Shown here: in pieces, positions 1,181 through 57,848 of the stretch
How positions within the stretch are numbered: position 1 is the first letter of the stretch
How the letters are laid out: every line of letters begins with the position of its first letter
Assembly (NCBI RefSeq): GCF_028009165.1
Contig: NC_079245.1
Coordinates: forward strand, 2,914,001-2,978,000
Source of the DNA: Akanthomyces muscarius
Taxonomy: Eukaryota; Ascomycota; Sordariomycetes; Hypocreales; Cordycipitaceae
Direction of reading: 5' to 3'
DNA: 64,000 nt
The notes under the pieces: model-generated
Database searches by the model: none
Seen by the model: the letters and a program-made list of their open reading frames with translations, nothing else
What the model was told of the DNA's origin: nothing
Position numbers and translations under genes: made by a program

Positions 1181-1849
1181 TTAAAGGGTAGTGGCTACGA
1201 GTCCAAGCAGCCCGCCCGCCCCTATCAAAACAGCCCTGACCGAGTTCAGACGCGCGAATTGACCGAGGCGGTCCCTCATTTCTCTGTCTTCCTCCGGAGT
1301 CGAGTCGCGTGCAGTCGATGCATGAGCGCCGGTGAGGTCGGTGAACTCGTCTCCCTCACCCTTGCCCGCCACAGAGTCGGACGCTGAGCGGGAGCCCGGC
1401 GTCGGCGTAGTTTTGCCATTTTTAGCCTCGAGCATGGCTTTTTCGCTTCTGAAGCCACCAAGTTCCTCATTCTTCTTAATCATGGAAAAGTTGAGCGGAA
1501 TCATGAATATTTGGGTAAAAGAGCCGATGCTCAGGGCCAGGCCTGCTGCTGCCAGCAAGAAATTCGTCTTGGGGCCCATTTTGGTGAAGGAGTTGAGCGA
1601 TGTAAAGCGATGCGCGGGAGGTAGAGCGCGGTAGGCACACTGTAATAGACTGGCGCCCGATACGAATGCGGCCGTTGGGAAAATGTGTGATCCACGACTG
1701 AATAGCCATCTGATGCTCGGCAGAGATCTCGAGGCGGGTTGCGCTTGAAGCAACGGCACGTCAAACGCACTCAGTGTCGCGATGCCACCGGAAGCAAAGA
1801 GAGGCAAGGCCACTGCTGTCACTTGGACAATGCTGTTGAGGTCGGGCAT
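1181..1849 (-). CDS. DUF1772 / anthrone oxygenase-like membrane protein
   Basis: A single-exon frame of 222 residues starts at ATG 1849 and ends in TAA at 1181-1183. Hydrophobic segments lie near residues 8-28, 50-68, 95-118 and 200-220, the four-helix layout of DUF1772. Fungal members of this family include anthrone oxygenases of polyketide pathways, and others have no known role. The loop between the third and fourth helices (about 128-190) is longer than I expect for the family and rich in Ser, Glu and Asp. No polyketide synthase or other pathway gene lies nearby, so a role in secondary metabolism is not supported. The family call rests on topology and overall resemblance, not on a catalytic motif. 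Confidence 0.65.
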   Translation of the reverse strand: MPDLNSIVQVTAVALPLFASGGIATLSAFDVPLLQAQPASRSLPSIRWLFSRGSHIFPTAAFVSGASLLQCAYRALPPAHRFTSLNSFTKMGPKTNFLLAAAGLALSIGSFTQIFMIPLNFSMIKKNEELGGFRSEKAMLEAKNGKTTPTPGSRSASDSVAGKGEGDEFTDLTGAHASTARDSTPEEDREMRDRLGQFARLNSVRAVLIGAGGLLGLVATTL

Positions 1850-2049
1850 GGTGGAGGTAGTTGTCGGCAGAGAAAATGTGAAATTTGATCGAGTATACAG
1901 TTATCCTTTTCCTGTCGTGAACATGGGTGTTAAATAGATGTGCGATTGAAATCAAAATCCAGCCTTTCGGCACCCGGACACGCTGGAACTCCGATGTCCA
2001 CAGCCCAAGAGGCCCTGGAAATAGTGGTGATGTCAAGACCGTCATTGAC

Positions 2050-22000: not shown

Positions 22001-23793
22001 TCAAGACTGGATGAAAAAAAAAATCGGACGTCTGTTTCACTCGTGAGCAGCAGCCTCAAGCCTATGCGAGCCAACGCAAGAGCCGCCTTCCTCACTAGCT
22101 TCCCCGCAATGAAACACGGACACATGGTAACTGAGCCGCAAGTGCGTCGCGCGAGTGTGAGATCGTCTCGGATGAAATTAGCTTCACGCGGATATGCAGG
22201 ACCGTCTACCAGCCGCAACTGCACAGGTGATCTTCCGTGCGACACTGATTCAGGGTCGCGTTGCTAGCAGGAATCTTGGATTTGATGCAGATGGGCTCAC
22301 CTCAATGACACCGCATCTCGTTTCTCGGGGTGACGTGATCATGGCATAATTTTGTGCTCCGATGCGTTGCGCACAAGTCAGTTGCACATCCAAGTGCTTA
22401 GTAGCGAATATTTGACTCGACAAATGAAAAAAGTCCACCCGGCACCAGCACCTCCAACATTAATCGGCATTATTCTCTTCTAATTTCACACATCTGTGGG
22501 TCAGAACATATAGGATATCGAGTAAAATCCACTTGGCTTTCATAGCCTCGGCTGCCTCGTGAGGCTCTCGCGACTCTAGGGTAGGAAGTGTTGATGTTGC
22601 TCGTCAAGCACCTCGATCGATGAGTGAGATGTAGTTCTCAAATCAAGGCTTAGCGGCTAAAGTAGTCAATGCGTGTACTATTTCGAACAAACAACTTAAT
22701 GTAATTGGGATGTAGTCAAGATGCAAATTGGAATCTAGGTCTAGGTGTACGCTGTTGGCACGTTAATGGAACAGCCACCAGCAATCTCGTAATCCGTTAT
22801 GCTCCTACCGTCAAACCTTGCGCTTGTGCATGCTAAGAAAACATCAAACGGTGGGAGATACTGCAGTACTCAATCGTGATACCCTTGAAGAAGATTCGAA
22901 CCTTCGTAAAGCACAGGCTGTCGAGTTCCCACGTCGTAAAGGCGTCAAAAGTCTCAATTACGGATGATAGTAAATATCGAAACAGCACTATAGAGGGAAT
23001 CGTCCATAGTATCAGCGCAATACTAGCTGTCTAGGGGGAGATTCAGCTGCTCGGAGGCGATCGGCGTCGGAGTGGCGGTAGGATGCAGTCGAGGCGTGGC
23101 CAGAGAATCCGCCATCTGCGGAGCCGTGGATGGACGAGAAGAGAGCGATAGACTTGTGTCCGCGGTGAATCAAGGGGAATAGCAAGTCTTTAAAGGATCT
23201 GCAACAAAATGATGGTGGAAAATCGCGAATAACGTTCTTTTTTTAAAATGCTCAGACGCAGACCGCGCAGTCATCACGGTAGCAGCAACCATGATTACCT
23301 CTGAGAAAGTTCAGACAGCCAATGACGGGATGGTTTCCAAGCTCGATTATCTGGTGAATTTGAGAATTAAGTCAAACCTTGAGTCTCGGACTTTTTCTAT
23401 TACGGGATGCCAAGAGACTGGAGTCACAAGCCCAGCGATGCGCAGCGGCCGCCGAAAGTCAGATCAGGGTCCTGGGTCGAGACGCCTATAACACAATGCT
23501 CGTTTTGGATAACCGTTGGCCTAGGAAACCGCTGGTCGTGGCTTACCCTGTCACCTTTTTGAAATTTCTCTTAAGCTGCGCAGCATTAGCGCAGCGTCGC
23601 TGAGGCGAGAACTGCTGCTCATGAGCTGCATACGACCAAAGCCCAAAGCATTTTCGATTTGCCATCAAGTGCGACTCTTAAGGGCAAAACTTAAGGAAAC
23701 CCCAGAATATGCATTAAGCTTTTTTTTTGTCTAAAAGAAAAAAGAGCGAGAGGGGTGGCTCGGCAAGCACGAGTTCCATGAACTCAAAAAGGT
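16080..23793. other. Gene-poor region of about 7.7 kb
   Basis: None of the open frames here shows a domain, a signal peptide with consistent splicing, or codon use like the neighbours. A (GTAT)n run lies at about 16395-16414. Short T or A homopolymers are frequent. I see no transposase, reverse transcriptase or terminal repeats. Unannotated small multi-exon genes or non-coding RNAs remain possible. Confidence 0.45.
16395..16414. repeat. GTAT tetranucleotide microsatellite
   Basis: About five uninterrupted units of TATG/GTAT. Confidence 0.8.
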
Positions 23794-23865
23794 AGGTCTC
23801 GGAGGGAGTCGAACCCTCGCTGGCGGAATCAGAATCCGCAGTCATAACCGTTAGACCACGAAACC
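23794..23865 (-). tRNA. tRNA-Gln (CTG)
   Basis: The minus strand folds into a standard 72-nt cloverleaf without an intron. The acceptor stem GGTTTCG pairs with CGAGACC. The anticodon arm is GCGGA-TTCTGAA-TCCGC, giving anticodon CTG for CAG codons. The T arm contains GGTTCGACTCC. A T5 run just downstream (A5 at 23786-23790 on the + strand) serves as Pol III terminator. Confidence 0.93.
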
Positions 23866-24314
23866 TGGGTCTTGTGGTGGGAACGCAAGCGCCATATCAC
23901 GGCTCTTCAGCCCCGTTGGTTGACGCCAAAGATCGATGCGTTTCTAGGAAGGGGGTAACGCTGCGCTTTACAAGGAGAAAGCATACGCCATTTAAGGAGG
24001 CGAAGTTGCCAAAGGTAGCTATCCATCATAATCGCCCCGGGCAACAGTGACCAATAAGCGCACGACGCTTTGCGCAACGCTCTACGCTACTAGCAGCCAC
24101 AACCAACTCCTTGCTCAACTGCTATCGCGAGACCAAAGTGGATGTCGGCAAGAAACAAATTTCCGCGTGGAAATTATAATGTATATTGGCTAAAATCAAG
24201 CATTTTCATTTATCACAGGTGCGGTATATATAATGCGATTTTTCCCACGTCGCTGCCGGTGCAGTGAGTCGCCAGGCTCTGTCCAATTCCTTTTCATCAA
24301 CAGGAAGAAGTGGC

Positions 24315-25355
24315 CTACCTGTGGCCGGACGTTGCGCCGGTAGTCCAGTCAGGCTCATCACCGCGCCACGAAGTCCCTATAATTAAAAGTTAGTACATTT
24401 CATCCATGCGTCTATGGCCTGTCTTTGTTGAGGGCGAGCATTCTTACCTAACGTTGGATGTGTCAGGATCGGGCCATCCAGGTTGGGAATCGCATGCTCC
24501 TTGGACCAAGCGACTAGCTTGTCCCAGCTGCGGCACTGATGCTCCGTCTTCTCAGTCGGCCACGGAAATCTATAGTCGTCGATCCATTCAAACGGGTGCA
24601 GCGCCACGTCCCCATGGCACATGAGAGTTTGGCGCAGCAAGTCGATGCAGTGGTCAAAGTGCTCTCGCTGCTGCGCCATAGGATTCGGGTTCTGGTAGTA
24701 ATCGGAGTAGTAGGATTTGCGGACGTGGTTTACGCAGTGGAGGGTATGGTAGACGTCTAGTGTGACAAAATAGCCGCCTTTTTCGTCGTTGAGCGGTACC
24801 GATGTAACATTCGCCTTGTCGAGATCTTCTTTCTGCACGCGAATGTCGTTGTCTTGAAGGACACTTTTGTTAGTACGATGGGTTCAAAGCAGGAGAGTGG
24901 CGAGGCCGGCGTACATTGTAAAAGATCTGCCCACGCTTGATCGACTTCGGGACGTGGCATGCCTCTAAAACTGCTGTCTTTGAAGACTTCATGATCGATC
25001 GTTTGCTTATGATATTCGACAGCCGTATTGGCCGGTGCTGCGCGGGGTCGTCAATATATGATACCGCATGTGTGCCTCGCTCGATTCACTTACAGTAGAC
25101 TTGACCATTTTCGCACTCGCACTTGATCGCGCGCAGTTTTGCACCCCATATCAGTAGCAAAACTGCAATGATGCCATAAATAGTAATGACCCCGACGTGT
25201 AAAAATATTTTTAGCCGTCCGTTTTGTTTCGATCGTCTATCTTGTAACGAAAGCAGGAGCTTTTCCTGTGATTGGTCTGAGCTCAAGAGGCTTTCTGTAT
25301 CAGATGCATCTGTGGCATCGCTCGTGGGTTTCTCCAAGTGCCTTTGTGAATACAT
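24315..25355 (-). CDS. UstYa-family (DUF3328) oxidase-like protein 1
   Basis: Four exons (25355-25094, 25037-24915, 24852-24448, 24376-24315) close to 283 residues. An N-terminal cytosolic tail is followed by one membrane helix at 49-71, then the luminal UstYa domain. That domain shows VYSPA, PEVDQAW and two copper-ligand-type motifs, YHTLHC (H164-H167-C168) and HFDHC (H193-H196-C197). UstYa and UstYb proteins carry out oxidative ring closure on Tyr-containing cores in ustiloxin, phomopsin and asperipin pathways. Intron 2 uses an unusual AAG acceptor after a TACTAAC branch site. Intron 3 (24447-24377) has TACTAAC and TATAG, and moves the stop from 24383 to 24315. It lies 580 bp from the repeat precursor on the same strand, which supports a joint role. 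Confidence 0.88.
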
Positions 25356-25935
25356 GCTTAAAGACCAATGTTGAGATTGTCGCTTGCCAAAAATTACAGT
25401 CTTGAATGCTTGTCAACTGTGGCGAGAAAGATGTCAGAAGCAAAGGCGAAGTAGGGTACGTGGGGGTGGAACAGAGCCAAGCTCAGCGCCGCCTAGTTAG
25501 GTTACTTAGTGCTTACCACTGTGGTGCCCTATGTCGTACCAGTCTTGGCCCCCATCGTCAGAAGGATTCTAGGCGCAAGCCACATTTGCTCACTGCCACC
25601 AGATCTGCAAGGTTACATCCGGCACTCGTGGACAAAGAATACTCCGTCTTGAAGAAGTTCTAATCCTTTGTTTTTACGTTTTGTCGATTATGTTTGTGGT
25701 GTTGCTGCTCAGAGTTTTACGCTAGCTTCAAGGATCCAGAGCCTGTATCGGTCAATTTACACAGCAACCACAGGCAGCGCAGTGAGACAATTCTTGGTTT
25801 ATGACGAGCATTAATTGAGGAGCAATAATTCTAGTTACACCAGTTCCAAGTCTAACTATTGTAGTGGCCAAGCTCATGTTGTCTTCATACCCTCATTCTA
25901 AAGTCGTCACGCAACAGCTTTTCAAAGCCTGTCGA
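25356..25935. other. Spacer between UstYa 1 and the repeat precursor
   Basis: No gene is supported. Both flanking genes read leftward, so this holds the promoter of UstYa 1 and the 3' end of the precursor. Confidence 0.5.
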
Positions 25936-26595
25936 TTAGTTCTCGGCCTCGTCGGAGCGCTTTCCCCAGCCAGCCTGGTTGTTGTAGAGAATATCGCCCT
26001 TGGGAGCGCGCTTTCCCCAGCCGGCCTGGTTGTTGTAAAGGATATCGCCCTTGGGGGCGCGCTCCTCGACCTCTTCAGAGCGCTTACCCCAGCCAGCCTG
26101 GTTGTTGTAGAGAATATCACCCTTGGGGGCGCGCTCCTCGACCTCTTCAGAGCGCTTGCCCCAGCCAGCCTGGTTGTTGTAAAGAATATCACCCTTGGGG
26201 GCGCGGGCATCGACTTCCTCGGAGCGCTTTCCCCAGCCGGCCTGGTTGTTGTAAAGGATGTCGCCCTTGGGAGCACGCTTGCCCCAGCCGGCCTGGTTGT
26301 TGTAAAGGATGTCGCCCTTGGGAGCACGCTTGCCCCAGCCGGCCTGGTTGTTGTAAAGGATGTCACCCTTGGGGGCGCGGGCATCGACCTCCTCGGATCG
26401 CTTACCCCAACCAGCTTGGTTGTTGTAGAGAATATCACCCTTGGGGGCGCGGGCATCGACTTCCTCGGAGCGCTTTCCCCAACCAGCCTGGTTGTTGTAA
26501 AGGATATCGCCCTTGGGGGCACGCTCAGCCACATCGACGGGTGCGGCAAGGGCGGCGCCGAAAAGGGCAACGACGACAGGGACGGAAAACTTCAT
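25936..26595 (-). CDS. Kex2-processed repeat peptide precursor (putative dikaritin-type RiPP)
   Basis: The single-exon product of 219 residues starts with a signal peptide (MKFSVPVVVALFGAALAAP). Nine repeats of APKGDILYNNQAGWGKR follow. Six are followed by an acidic spacer (SEEVDAR, SEEVEER, or SDEAEN at the end). Three (repeats 3, 4 and 8) abut the next copy directly. Each core ends in KR, the Kex2 cleavage site in the Golgi. The core has a single Tyr and a single Trp, as expected for a UstYa substrate. This is the architecture of ustiloxin- and asperipin-type precursors and of Kex2-processed repeat proteins generally. The core sequence is not one I recognise. Cyclisation is inferred from the UstYa neighbours. 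A peptide signal with no modification is the main alternative. Confidence 0.88.
   Translation of the reverse strand: MKFSVPVVVALFGAALAAPVDVAERAPKGDILYNNQAGWGKRSEEVDARAPKGDILYNNQAGWGKRSEEVDARAPKGDILYNNQAGWGKRAPKGDILYNNQAGWGKRAPKGDILYNNQAGWGKRSEEVDARAPKGDILYNNQAGWGKRSEEVEERAPKGDILYNNQAGWGKRSEEVEERAPKGDILYNNQAGWGKRAPKGDILYNNQAGWGKRSDEAEN
25939..26520 (-). repeat. Nine tandem core repeats inside the precursor gene
   Basis: Units are 72 bp (with spacer) or 51 bp (without). The core amino acids are identical in all nine, but the DNA differs at synonymous sites. For example, the Asp-Ile-Leu codons appear as GAT-ATT-CTC, GAT-ATC-CTT and GAC-ATC-CTT. Confidence 0.95.
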
Positions 26596-27765
26596 GTTGA
26601 ATCAGAATTTGGGTTGAGTATATTGGCAATAAGAAGTGTAAAAGTTTGTTGTTTCGAAAATAGCATGTTATGGTGAGCGGAGGTCTGGGATATGTATGTG
26701 ACCTGGTCTCGCATAAGCATACACAAGCAGGTCTTCCTGCATGTTGCAACGCACCCACCAATGGCGGCACTTCACTAGTCTTCTTTCCTGATCCGATCCC
26801 TTTATGGCATGCTACATTGCGACCTTGTTCTCGGACTTGAGTTATGGATACCTGACCTTGCCAGTTTTGAGTACGGGTTTGACGCCAGTGTACCTAGGCG
26901 GAGAGGTCTGCATCATCCACCATGTTTCTCGCCCAATCATCCGTCATCCCCTCCCTCCTAGGCTTAGACCCATTATTTGAGAGACAGCTATTAATAACGA
27001 ATTATGTGGTGGCTTTGGGGCTCTGCTTCAACTCCAATGCATGGACAATCTCTACGCATCCGCATGGGTGCAGGATTACCAAGGGAAGCGGGCAACACGA
27101 AGTCTATTTTAGAGACAGCAAGATGAATCATTTTGTACGAAAATAACACGTCGCGACGATAAAGCCCTAACATAGGTAGTAGAGATATAGAATTGGTCCT
27201 CGGGGCAGGTCGTGTAAGTCAAGAGAAAGTGGCGGAGCTGTGGACAATCGTTTCTAAGTTCTGACATGCAAACTAAACCCAGAGTAGTGTGGCGGTTGCT
27301 CCACCATCCATTGGCACTTGCCATCCCACAAGATAGAGGAGAAAAATGGCGTCTTACTTACATCTCACACCGCGTGATAGATAGTGCCATGGCCCCCCGC
27401 ATAGACTTGGGCTGGACTAGCGCTCCCCGCAGGGCTGGCCGCGTACCCTGCTGTGTGTGTTGAGGTTTGTAGGTTCGTTTAAACGAAAATCAAGGCGGCA
27501 CCATGGAACTCCGCAAATGTAACACTTGCAGTAGAATATCACCAGTTTGAGATGGAGTGGCGGAAAGGGGGGCATTTCTTACACAGTGCGGAATAGAGAC
27601 AGCTCCACAGCTTGCCACCCCAGGCAACTCAGAGAAGATCCGTGACCTATTCGTTCGCAATTGGAAAGCAATACTCGCAAGGCCTAGAACTGCAGTAATA
27701 CACTGGCTACGGCGAATAATACTTTTGCGAAACAAAAGAGCGAGATTGAATTGATTCCTTGACCG
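26596..27765. other. Divergent spacer between precursor and UstYa 2
   Basis: The precursor (left, minus) and UstYa 2 (right, plus) diverge, so this 1.2-kb region probably carries both promoters. I see no further gene. A CATAAAG on the minus strand near 26810 is a weak TATA candidate for the precursor. Confidence 0.45.
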
Positions 27766-28669
27766 ATGGAACACAAAGTCGCTCAACGAGCCTCCGATGA
27801 GGTGCCTTTTTTACAGGAGGGGGAAAAAGACAGCTACGAGCTGCCATTACGCCCAGCTCGTCGCGAAAGATGGGCAAATATTCTACCATACTCTGTCGTG
27901 CTGAATGTGGGTTTGTTATTGGCTCTCTTTGCTGTATGGAGCTTGCAAAAACACGACCCCAGCAAGCATTACATTCCCAACGAAGTCTACTGTAAGTAGC
28001 ACTCCTTATTGCAAGGAAGAAGATGCGTACTAAGAATCAAAAGCACCCGCAAAATCGGTAGTCGAGTACAACAACATACTCTTTACGGGGGGTCTCAAAG
28101 GAGATACCTCAAAGTATCTGGGCTCGACACCAGAGGTTGACGAAGCCTGGGATGACCTCTACAACAGTACGTGTTTGCGCCTGACTACAGTGGCCAATCA
28201 GCACCTAATTTGTGTTTCCATTCTAGAAGTCTTGATCTCCCAAATATTACCGGAAACAGCGGCCAAGCTTCCCAACGCCACGACGAGGTTCTCAAACGAC
28301 ACCGACTACCACATCGTGGAGCTCGATGTCTTCCACCAGCTGCACTGCCTGAATATGATGCGCAAATTAGTTTATCCCACAGCGTACCCGATGGACCTGA
28401 CATCAGGCTCCGAGGAGGCTGAAGACAACATCTTCCACATGGAGCATTGCTACGAGCAGCTGCGGCAGTCGCTGCAGTGCACGTCGGACCTCTCCACCAT
28501 TACCTGGCAATGGAGCAGGAAGCAGGGCAGGTTCATCGGGAATGTGCACACGATGCATACGTGCAAGAATTTTGACAAGATTCACGAGTGGGCGGTCGAG
28601 AACCATGCCGCGCAGGACTTGGATTTCTACGAGTTTGTTGAGGGAGCGCCAATCTTCAAAAACGAGTAG
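27766..28669 (+). CDS. UstYa-family (DUF3328) oxidase-like protein 2
   Basis: Three exons (27766-27991, 28044-28166, 28227-28669) close to 263 residues. One membrane helix lies at about 38-60, then VYSPAKSVVEYNN, PEVDEAWDDLY and the two signature motifs VFHQLHC (H153-H156-C157) and HMEHC (H187-H190-C191). The protein is closer to the family consensus than UstYa 1. Intron 1 starts at the same codon position as in UstYa 1 (within VYS) and also uses an AAG acceptor, consistent with common descent. In known pathways two UstYa proteins often act as a pair on one precursor. It is divergently transcribed from the precursor. Confidence 0.9.
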
Positions 28670-28819
28670 AGCGATTGGGGGGGCCAATACCCATGTAATA
28701 GAATGCACATGGCACATGAAGAATACTCGATTTAAAGGCACGTGTGCAGTAGCAATAGATATTTACATGTACAATTAAATGCAAGCTTTACTGTTCCATT
28801 GGCTATTACATGTAAACCT

Positions 28820-29512
28820 CTATTTCGCACATTTCGGATACTTGACAAAGATCTTGGTGCCCGAGTCCTTCATGCCGTCTGGGTGGCCGCCAATCATCTT
28901 GACGCAGTGGCTCGTGTGGTGATAGTTGGCCGTGTACGTGTCCAGCTGCTGCGCCGGGTCCAGCAGGATCCTGTGCAGGCGCTTCCACACGTACATGCAG
29001 TGCGTGACGTGCCAGTCAAACGACGTGTCAAAGTAGCCGTAGTCGCCCGCGCCGAGCTCCTCGACCGTCATGTTGTGGCCCGACGACGTGCCGTAGCGCC
29101 AGTGCCGGTCCTTGTACATGTCCCGGGCGTCCTCGTCGTCGGCGGCCGTCAGGCAGGCCTCGGGCAGCCACGAGTGCAGCACGATGCTGTACTTGCAGCC
29201 GCGCGCTTTGGCGTCCTCGGGCGAGTTGCCGCAGTCGCCGTGCGACCAGGCCAGCGGGAGACCGGTCGTGGGGTCGGTGCCGTTTTGCGCCTGGGGGATG
29301 ATGCGTGCGTGCGAGTGCTTTGGTGTGGAGGAAAGGGTAGAATAGATGGAAAATACCATGCCCATGGTCGCGAGGCCGAGGACAAAGGCGCTCACTGTGG
29401 GAAGCCAGCGGCGCCGTTGCGGTGCTTGTGGGCGATAGTCATTTTCATCATCGCTGGTGTTGTCGCCGACCTGCTCGTATTTGATCTTGCTGGCCATGTT
29501 GGAAATATCCAT
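28820..29512 (-). CDS. Membrane protein with two HxxHC motifs, UstYa-related
   Basis: The single-exon product of 230 residues starts at ATG 29512. The N-terminal tail is acidic, with a membrane helix at about 36-58. The luminal domain has a cysteine-rich start (HGDCGNS and ARGCKYS) and two motifs, DWHVTHC (H168-H171-C172) and YHHTSHC (H199-H202-C203). These resemble the copper-ligand motifs of UstYa proteins, but the rest of the sequence belongs to a separate, widespread ascomycete family of unknown function. It converges with UstYa 2, 150 bp away. The position next to the precursor suggests a third modifying activity. That role is inference. Confidence 0.72.
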   Translation of the reverse strand: MDISNMASKIKYEQVGDNTSDDENDYRPQAPQRRRWLPTVSAFVLGLATMGMVFSIYSTLSSTPKHSHARIIPQAQNGTDPTTGLPLAWSHGDCGNSPEDAKARGCKYSIVLHSWLPEACLTAADDEDARDMYKDRHWRYGTSSGHNMTVEELGAGDYGYFDTSFDWHVTHCMYVWKRLHRILLDPAQQLDTYTANYHHTSHCVKMIGGHPDGMKDSGTKIFVKYPKCAK

Positions 29513-31736: not shown

Positions 31737-31808
31737 ATGAAACTGCCGCCCCTACAGGCTCACATACATGAGGCTGCAACTCGTAGCTCTTGTGACGCTT
31801 GCGACTAG
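31737..31808 (+). promoter_or_regulatory. Upstream ORF overlapping the pheromone start
   Basis: An ATG at 31737 opens a frame of 23 codons that ends in TAG at 31806-31808, past the main ATG at 31768 and in a different frame. If present in the mRNA it would reduce translation of the precursor. A CCTACAG just downstream could instead be a splice acceptor that removes it. Confidence 0.4.
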
Positions 31809-32349
31809 TGCTTTTGCGGCTCCGGCCCCCCAACCATGGTGCATGAGACCTGCCCAGCCCTGCTGGAAGCTCAAGCGCGCCGTCGACGCCATCAACAAGC
31901 ATGCCGCCGACACTCTGCCGCCGCACGATGGGGTCCAGGAGCGAGCGGCGGCGACGCCGACCGATCTTGACCTCTTTGCCGCCTCCGCCTACGACCACCT
32001 CGTCCACCTCGCCGCCAACGCCTCGCCCGACCCCGACGCCTTTTACGAGCAGCACCGCCTCCACAGCGCCAGGCGCGACGACAACCAGCTCCGCTGCGCG
32101 GGCGACGGCGCGGCCTGCTGGGCGCGCGGCGCCGAGCAGTCCGGCGAAGTCGAGAAGCGGTGGTGCATGAGGCCGGCGCAGCCATGCTGGAAGACCAGGC
32201 GCGCGGCCGAGTCGATTCTGAATGCTGGGCAGGAGGACGACGACGGCGCATCGGAGGAGTGCGGCGCTGACGACGGCGAGTGCGCCAACGCGAAGCGGCA
32301 CCTCGATGGTCTCCATCAGGTGGCCCGAGAAATTGTCAAAGTCTTTTAG
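31768..32349 (+). CDS. ppg1: Alpha-type mating pheromone precursor
   Basis: The product of 193 residues has a signal peptide (cleavage near FAAPAPQP) and two copies of the decapeptide WCMRPAQPCW at residues 24-33 and 132-141. The flanking Cys-Trp frame WC....QPCW is that of Sordariomycete alpha-factor-like pheromones. Copy 1 follows the signal peptide through AP dipeptides and ends before KLKR. Copy 2 follows EKR and ends before KTRR, as expected for Kex2, Kex1 and dipeptidyl-peptidase processing. The region between is acidic and Ala-rich. The central Gly of many family members is Ala here. An out-of-frame upstream ATG at 31737 overlaps the start. The secreted peptide would act on a Ste2-type receptor of the opposite mating type. 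Confidence 0.9.
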   Translation: MRLQLVALVTLATSAFAAPAPQPWCMRPAQPCWKLKRAVDAINKHAADTLPPHDGVQERAAATPTDLDLFAASAYDHLVHLAANASPDPDAFYEQHRLHSARRDDNQLRCAGDGAACWARGAEQSGEVEKRWCMRPAQPCWKTRRAAESILNAGQEDDDGASEECGADDGECANAKRHLDGLHQVAREIVKVF

Positions 32350-57776: not shown

Positions 57777-57848
57777 TGCTTCGGAGGGGAATCGAACCCC
57801 CGATCTTCGCATTACGAGTGCGACGCCTTACCACTTGGCCACCAAAGC
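57777..57848 (-). tRNA. tRNA-Thr (CGT)
   Basis: A 72-nt cloverleaf lies on the minus strand: acceptor GCTTTGG with CCGAAGC, anticodon arm TCGCA-CTCGTAA-TGCGA giving CGT for ACG codons, and T arm GGGGGTTCGATTCCCC. There is no intron. A T6 terminator follows (A6 at 57763-57768 on the + strand). Confidence 0.93.

What the first reader, a model, noticed from the sequence alone, without database searches (positions are those of the whole stretch)
24315..29512. Putative new dikaritin-type RiPP locus with a nine-repeat precursor and three HxxHC proteins
Seen: a secreted precursor with nine KR-terminated identical cores, two UstYa (DUF3328) proteins each with two HxxHC motifs, and a third membrane protein with two HxxHC motifs, all within 5.2 kb. 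Known: this gene set makes ustiloxin, phomopsin and asperipin-like cyclic peptides through Kex2 release and UstYa oxidation. Inference: the core APKGDILYNNQAGWG, with one Tyr and one Trp, gives a cyclic or cross-linked peptide. I recognise no described product with this core. No methyltransferase, FMO or transporter is visible in the window.
Basis: partly seen in the sequence, partly recalled or inferred. Interest (0 to 1): 0.85.

Follow-up and report, generated by a model that had tools for sequence, protein, structure and literature searches.

The report
Fungal repeat-peptide cluster with copper oxidases
A fungus carries a small gene cluster that probably cuts nine identical copies of a short peptide out of one secreted protein and oxidises them into a cross-linked product; related precursors occur in other fungi, but the product and its role are unknown.

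Summary
A 219-aa precursor carries nine identical APKGDILYNNQAGWG-KR units whose DNA differs only at 10 silent third-codon sites. Beside it lie two clear UstYa/DUF3328 proteins and a third single-TM protein, C, with two HxxHC motifs.

New evidence: (1) 22 of 23 counted relatives from three hypocrealean families share D[I/V/S]LYxxxxGW[G/A]. (2) 4 of 23 precursor contigs match exactly the length and source of a contig bearing a C relative; in one Fusarium the locus tags are 8877 and 8879. (3) A second precursor+UstYa+UstYa block, core DILYFMPVGWG, lies about 93 kb away. (4) The same genome separately holds an EDYTI ustiloxin-type precursor near UstYa and tyrosinase matches, so this cluster is a different line.

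Best explanation: a Kex2-processed fungal RiPP oxidised by copper-dependent UstYa enzymes, probably cross-linked at the conserved Tyr. No product was seen, A/B linkage was not tested in other species, and C's family membership is inconclusive. New member of a known kind; prior listing in survey supplements is not excluded.

The parts
24315..25355 (-). Gene A, UstYa/DUF3328 protein (283 aa; exons 25355-25094, 25037-24915, 24852-24448, 24376-24315), TM near residue 51, HxxHC at 164 and 193
   Evidence: PF11807 E=5.3e-57; gene model; motifs; best match elsewhere in the genome is A2 of the second cluster, 57%
25936..26595 (-). Precursor, 219 aa, hydrophobic N-terminus and nine APKGDILYNNQAGWGKR units
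   Evidence: relatives
25957..26520 (-). Array of the nine 51-nt core+KR units, with five 21-nt acidic spacers
   Evidence: unit coordinates and silent-only variation; repeat families
26596..27765 (.). Divergent intergenic region between precursor and gene B (possible shared promoter; inferred from orientation only)
   Evidence: gene ends; the second cluster has a region of nearly the same size (1168 against 1114 bases as cut) with no more than 9-10-base matches
27766..28669 (+). Gene B, UstYa/DUF3328 protein (263 aa; exons 27766-27991, 28044-28166, 28227-28669), HxxHC at 153 and 187
   Evidence: PF11807 E=4.5e-45; gene model; best match elsewhere in the genome is B2, 66%
28820..29512 (-). Gene C, UstYa-like membrane protein (230 aa, no intron; 225 aa from the second Met), two HxxHC
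   Evidence: PF11807 only 10.2 bits against a cut-off of 25; 73 relatives; motif conservation; AlphaFold2 model, mean pLDDT 84.4

Best explanation
A Kex2-processed-repeat RiPP cluster of the UstYa/DUF3328 (dikaritin) kind. SHOWN: repeat precursor, two UstYa proteins, a third HxxHC protein, a precursor family with a near-fixed core in several hypocrealean genera, linkage of precursor and C in some other records, and a duplicated precursor+A+B block. INFERRED: (1) the precursor enters the secretory pathway and a kexin cuts after each KR; (2) further trimming leaves about (KG)DILYNNQAGWG, since Pro precedes the constant part (or its KG extension) in 60 of 64 units of relatives; (3) A and B, and probably C, are membrane-anchored lumenal binuclear-copper oxidases, by analogy with CctR, that oxidise the core, most likely linking the conserved Tyr to the Trp six residues on or to the Ile two residues before; (4) the modified peptide is secreted. 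Role unknown: a core this constant between genera suits a signal or a fixed target better than a fast-diverging toxin (inference).
For: Nine units with silent-only divergence. A and B match PF11807 at 5.3e-57 and 4.5e-45. 64 units in 22 of 23 counted relatives fit D[IVS]LYxxxxGW[GA] (the pattern itself fixes D, L, Y, G and W). 4 of 23 precursor contigs equal a C contig in length and source, and no pair differs by 1-10 bases. Second precursor+UstYa+UstYa block in the same order and orientation, with A2 and B2 the best genome matches of A and B. One kexin P-domain match in the genome. CctR: a DUF3328 protein with HxxHC(x)nHxxHC, two coppers and O2 dependence (PMC12435403, main text).
Against: No product, expression or deletion data. 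A and B linkage untested in other species. 19 of 23 precursors show no contig match with C (six lie on contigs under 4.9 kb), and no FMPV-type precursor does. Profile-profile comparison of C with UstYa gave 3.7% probability and C's model matched no solved fold. DUF3328 enzymes also act outside RiPPs (PMC12048977 passage).
Confidence: 0.78

Rival explanations
1. The peptides stay linear: a secreted linear signal or pheromone-like KEP, with the UstYa genes acting on something else.
For: 78% of catalogued KEPs have no DUF3328 neighbour and mating factors act linear (PMC7329392 sections 7-9). An alpha-pheromone-like gene lies 2.3 kb away. UniRef names one Fusarium relative 'Mating factor alpha'.
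Against: Precursor+A+B recurs as a block. The core has a constant Tyr and the paper finds Tyr enriched in KEPs beside DUF3328 genes (65.6% against 38.2%). Nearly all pheromone KEPs in that survey lack DUF3328 neighbours.
Confidence: 0.13
2. Gene C belongs to another pathway and is only a neighbour; A and B suffice.
For: The second cluster has precursor, A2 and B2 but no C. C relatives occur in genera where no precursor was found, such as Trichoderma, Hirsutella and Coniochaeta. C is below Pfam's UstYa cut-off.
Against: C shares contigs with the precursor in four other records, with tags two apart in Fusarium sp. NRRL 66182.
Confidence: 0.3
3. The product is a toxin or antibiotic of the ustiloxin/phomopsin sort rather than a signal.
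For: Characterised dikaritins are mostly mycotoxins (PMC9233826 and PMC12048977 passages).
Against: Core and cluster differ from ustiloxin/phomopsin, which this genome has separately; the core is near-constant between families. Neither point excludes a toxin.
Confidence: 0.35
4. Decayed or silent locus without a product.
For: No expression data. One counted relative, P0016, looks frame-disrupted.
Against: Silent-only divergence of nine units, open frames in A, B and C, and 22 patterned relatives.
Confidence: 0.03

Closest known systems
Kex2-processed repeat proteins beside DUF3328 genes (survey PMC7329392)
   Same: Signal-like N-terminus, tandem cores, KR sites; 1758 of 7878 catalogued KEPs have DUF3328 neighbours.
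   Different: Most KEP types there are unique at least at genus level; this core is nearly constant across Nectriaceae, Cordycipitaceae and Clavicipitaceae. Supplementary tables were not readable, so it may be listed there.
Ustiloxin / phomopsin clusters
   Same: Repeat precursor with Kex2 sites and two or more UstYa proteins.
   Different: EDYxI core and tyrosinase are missing here; an EDYTI precursor lies on contig 1 of the same genome.
Asperipin-2a (aprA/aprY/aprT/aprR)
   Same: Small cluster, Tyr-containing core, no tyrosinase among its four genes (PMC6514808 passages).
   Different: One UstYa, a transporter and a reductase there; two UstYa plus C here, core unrelated to FYYTGY.
Epichloecyclins (gigA)
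   Same: Four-gene cluster in a hypocrealean fungus with repeat precursor, DUF3328 gene and a hypothetical protein (PMC7317419 passages).
   Different: gigA's cluster holds a kexin gene; the one kexin match here is on contig 1. A review gives a Tyr-Ile link, another says details are undetermined.
CctR (copper DUF3328 hydroxylase)
   Same: One TM helix, lumenal helical domain, each HxxHC on its own helix: the layout of A and B by motif and of C by model.
   Different: CctR acts on a non-ribosomal cyclic peptide; copper binding was not tested for A, B or C.

Membership tests
Dikaritin / DUF3328-type fungal RiPP | Multiple core peptides separated by Kex2 sites in one precursor | tested here: met
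   Nine units ending in KR
Dikaritin / DUF3328-type fungal RiPP | Signal peptide on the precursor | tested here: inconclusive
   Hydrophobic, conserved N-terminus by eye in alignment A2; no predictor run
Dikaritin / DUF3328-type fungal RiPP | DUF3328/UstYa gene beside the precursor | tested here: met
   A and B, PF11807
Dikaritin / DUF3328-type fungal RiPP | Conserved linkage of precursor and oxidase genes | tested here: inconclusive
   Precursor+C on 4 of 23 contigs, precursor+A+B duplicated in this genome; A/B not searched in other species
Dikaritin / DUF3328-type fungal RiPP | Oxidative side-chain cross-link in the product | not testable with these tools
   Needs LC-MS/MS and NMR
Ustiloxin/phomopsin subgroup | EDYxI core | tested here: not met
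   Core is DILYNNQAGWG
Ustiloxin/phomopsin subgroup | Tyrosinase in the cluster | tested here: not met
   Nearest match on the contig about 0.9 Mb away
PF11807/UstYa family (protein C) | Pfam score over the curated cut-off | tested here: not met
   10.2 against 25 bits; but 20 of 37 family members match at E<=1, best 3e-6, and one relative carries PF11807 precomputed
PF11807/UstYa family (protein C) | HxxHC(x)nHxxHC | tested here: met
   n=26; H163, H166, H194, H197, C198 invariant and C167 at 90% or more of 37 aligned
PF11807/UstYa family (protein C) | Profile or fold similarity to known UstYa | tested here: inconclusive
   hhalign 3.7% (reversed control 0.2%); no solved relative by sequence or fold, so no reference fold was at hand; layout agrees with CctR as described
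Epichloecyclin (gigA) clusters | Kexin gene in the cluster | tested here: not met
   One P_proprotein match, on contig 1
Alpha-type mating pheromone precursors | Pheromone-like W-C...-QPCW core (motif recalled) | tested here: not met
   Absent from this precursor, present in the separate neighbour 31768-32349

The most novel reading that the evidence does not exclude
The DILYxxxxGW peptides are a conserved cross-linked peptide signal of Hypocreales: two UstYa oxidases and a divergent third one install a link not yet described for these enzymes (such as Tyr-Trp), and the product acts in sexual or developmental signalling, in line with its near-fixed core and, in this genome, its place 2.3 kb from an alpha-pheromone-like gene.
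Probability: 0.15. Interest if true: 0.8.

Novelty: new member of a known kind. Interest (0 to 1): 0.5.

Why it matters
It defines a compact, testable fungal RiPP family with a near-constant core in three families of Hypocreales, including Fusarium, where such small precursors are easily missed or named 'mating factor'. Two UstYa enzymes stand next to a divergent third HxxHC protein, and a natural duplicate keeps Tyr and Trp while changing the four residues between them or next to them, so the question which residues each DUF3328 enzyme joins becomes directly testable.

Tried and rejected
The window's precursor alone also hit animal neuropeptide precursors (APGW-amide, RGW-amide). They share short GWGKR-type units and I take them for chance convergence; an amidation signal (W-G-KR) is unlikely, as one Fusarium relative has GWA-KR. 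A Pfam hit of the precursor to YodE (E=2e-9, no stretch passing on its own) was taken for a repeat artefact. Profile-profile comparison of C with UstYa sequences of this genome gave 3.7% probability against 0.2% for a reversed control: no support. Fold search of C in the PDB: best E 3.5, nothing. The third genome match to the precursor (C5:3678230, E=0.25) lies in a long ORF without DILY repeats. Conserved DNA between the two precursor-B intergenic regions: only 9-10-base matches.

Literature: no paper of the library held the string GDILYNNQAGW, which would miss relatives with SPDILY. One search mixed in ILYNN, which matches personal names; of its 455 papers 20 were listed, each for ILYNN only, so it shows nothing either way for the other strings. 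In passages searched, GWG and YNN occur 0 times in the main texts of PMC7329392, PMC6339444 and PMC7099791. Supplementary files could not be read.

Papers, what I saw: PMC12435403 whole main text; PMC7329392 sections 6 (part 1 of 2), 7, 8, 9 and passages; PMC6339444 section 10 and passages; PMC9233826, PMC12048977, PMC7317419, PMC6514808, PMC7099791 and PMC13123250 passages only; others in listings only.

Rows dropped: of 27 rows I counted 23; left out were P0124 (leader only), P0125 and P0024 (animal), P0126 (NNQAGWGK repeats without DILY, E=0.018). The counting pattern presupposes D, L, Y, G and W, so their constancy is partly built in. Alignment A1 used 36 of the 73 C relatives plus the query. 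The query for C lacked its last residue and began at the second Met (224 of 230 aa). Contig matches use only the longest contig printed per protein cluster.
Full report
The window is bases 2,914,001-2,978,000 of contig 5 of a 36.2-Mb genome in 12 contigs. Gene C is 100% identical to an unnamed record (P0035) and closest among named ones to Cordyceps javanica (81%), so I take the host for a member of the Cordycipitaceae (inference).

Observation. The precursor, 25936-26595 on the minus strand, encodes 219 aa with nine copies of APKGDILYNNQAGWGKR. No two DNA units are the same, yet the 10 variable sites are all third-codon and silent, whereas 22% of random single changes would be. Three copies join directly, five carry SEEVDAR or SEEVEER in front, the first follows the leader. 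Genes A (24315-25355 minus, four exons) and B (27766-28669 plus, three exons) are clear UstYa/DUF3328 proteins. Gene C (28820-29512 minus) has one hydrophobic stretch and HVTHC...HTSHC.

Gene C. Against Pfam's UstYa model it scores 10.2 bits, below the cut-off of 25, but 20 of 37 aligned family members match it at E<=1, the best at 3e-6. In the 37 aligned (36 of 73 relatives plus the query) H163, H166, H194, H197 and C198 are invariant and C167 nearly so. The AlphaFold2 model (mean pLDDT 84.4) has a disordered tail, a helix at 31-56 over the hydrophobic stretch, and each HxxHC on its own helix (160-178 and 192-203). That is the layout described for CctR, whose HxxHC(x)nHxxHC motif holds two coppers and which needs O2 (PMC12435403). 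Against: profile-profile comparison with UstYa sequences failed and no solved fold matched, though no solved UstYa was found by sequence either. I call C UstYa-like, not a proven member.

Relatives of the precursor. Searches with the sequence and with an alignment gave 27 rows in the second; I counted 23. In 22 of them D[IVS]LYxxxxGW[GA] occurs, 64 units in all: DILYNNQAGWG 33, DILYFMPVGWG 12, DILYNNAAGWG 7, DILYNNPAGWG 4, DILYNNQAGWA 3, DILYFNSAGWG 2 and three singletons. The remaining one, P0016, looks frame-disrupted. Nine of the 23 bear a name: Zarea fungicola, Cordyceps javanica (two), [Torrubiella] hemipterigena, Beauveria mimosiformis, Fusarium sp. NRRL 66182, F. austroafricanum, F. oxysporum f. 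sp. vasinfectum and F. lateritium: Cordycipitaceae, Clavicipitaceae and Nectriaceae (five names looked up). Pro stands just before the constant part, or before its KG extension, in 60 of 64 units and throughout 20 of 22 relatives; P0004 and P0123 have Ala. That suggests an X-Pro or X-Ala trimming step (inference).

Linkage. The protein database gives no gene context but prints contig lengths. Four of 23 precursor contigs have exactly the length, and share a source, of a contig bearing a gene-C relative: 45,688, 16,958, 60,605 and 4,990 bases; no pair differs by 1-10 bases. On the 60,605-base contig of Fusarium sp. NRRL 66182 the tags are 8877 (precursor) and 8879 (C), which leaves one gene between them, as B lies between them here; what 8878 encodes was not seen. 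The other 19 show no match. Six of the 23 contigs are shorter than 4.9 kb, and only the longest contig per cluster is printed, so four may be a lower bound. A and B were not searched outside this genome.

A second cluster. About 93 kb away on the same contig lies a two-copy precursor (KNPDILYFMPVGWGKR) between UstYa genes in the same order and orientation. A's best match elsewhere is that A2 (57%, 179 bits; next gene 77 bits), B's is that B2 (66%, 218 bits; next gene 98 bits). No C stands beside it; C's other matches are 36% on contig 2 and one weak. The longer DNA matches between the clusters are 67-72% alike and the intergenic regions are not alike, so the duplication is old. None of the six FMPV-type precursors among the 23 matched a C contig.

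What it is not. The core is not EDYxI (PMC6339444 section 10) and the nearest tyrosinase match on the contig is about 0.9 Mb away. The genome has such a cluster elsewhere: on contig 1 an ORF with seven EDYTI units lies next to UstYa exons and tyrosinase matches. There is no kexin gene in this cluster, unlike gigA's (PMC7317419 passages); one kexin P-domain match lies on contig 1.

Mechanism. Known: ustQ, ustYa and ustYb together give the first cyclic ustiloxin intermediate and AprY is needed for asperipin-2a (PMC6514808 passages). By analogy A and B oxidise the core in the secretory lumen with copper and O2. The conserved Tyr is the expected donor; candidate partners are Trp at +6, kept by the second cluster while the residues between change, or Ile at -2 (I in 61, V in 2, S in 1 of 64 units). 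Neither was tested.

Role and novelty. Umemura's survey found 1758 of 7878 KEPs beside DUF3328 genes and most types unique at genus level (PMC7329392). The locus is a new member of that known kind. What stands out is the near-constant core across three families, the natural duplicate and the third oxidase-like protein. Prior listing in the surveys' supplements is not excluded. The alpha-pheromone-like gene 2.3 kb away is suggestive only; its linkage in relatives was not checked.

Noticed in passing
window 31768-32349 (+): Alpha-pheromone-like precursor (name from a recalled motif): 193 aa, secreted-type N-terminus, two WCMRPAQPCW copies; no Pfam hit. It starts 2.3 kb from gene C.
   Followed up: partly
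L017 and L018 (G000 contig 1, about 1,214,376-1,217,900): Separate ustiloxin-type cluster: an ORF with seven EDYTI units, UstYa exons and tyrosinase matches.
   Followed up: partly
L015 4703-4984 (-), with UstYa genes on both sides: Second DILY-type cluster, core DILYFMPVGWG in two copies, without a gene C. P0122, an unnamed record, is nearly the same precursor.
   Followed up: yes
L016 5614-6285 (-) (G000 contig 2): Distant C-like ORF (36% to C) with HAVHC...HHTRHC, near a UstYa match (C2:2856824) and long ORFs that look like an ABC transporter by eye.
   Followed up: no
P0112, P0016, P0126 (protein hits): P0112 (F. austroafricanum) is called 'Mating factor alpha' in UniRef though it is a DILY-type precursor; P0016 looks frame-disrupted; P0126 has NNQAGWGK repeats without the DILY half.
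   Followed up: no
window 1184-1900 (-): ORF with an anthrone-oxygenase domain, PF08592 E=1.5e-9.
   Followed up: no
window 23791-23866 (-) and 57777-57848 (-): tRNA-Gln just outside gene A, and tRNA-Thr.
   Followed up: no
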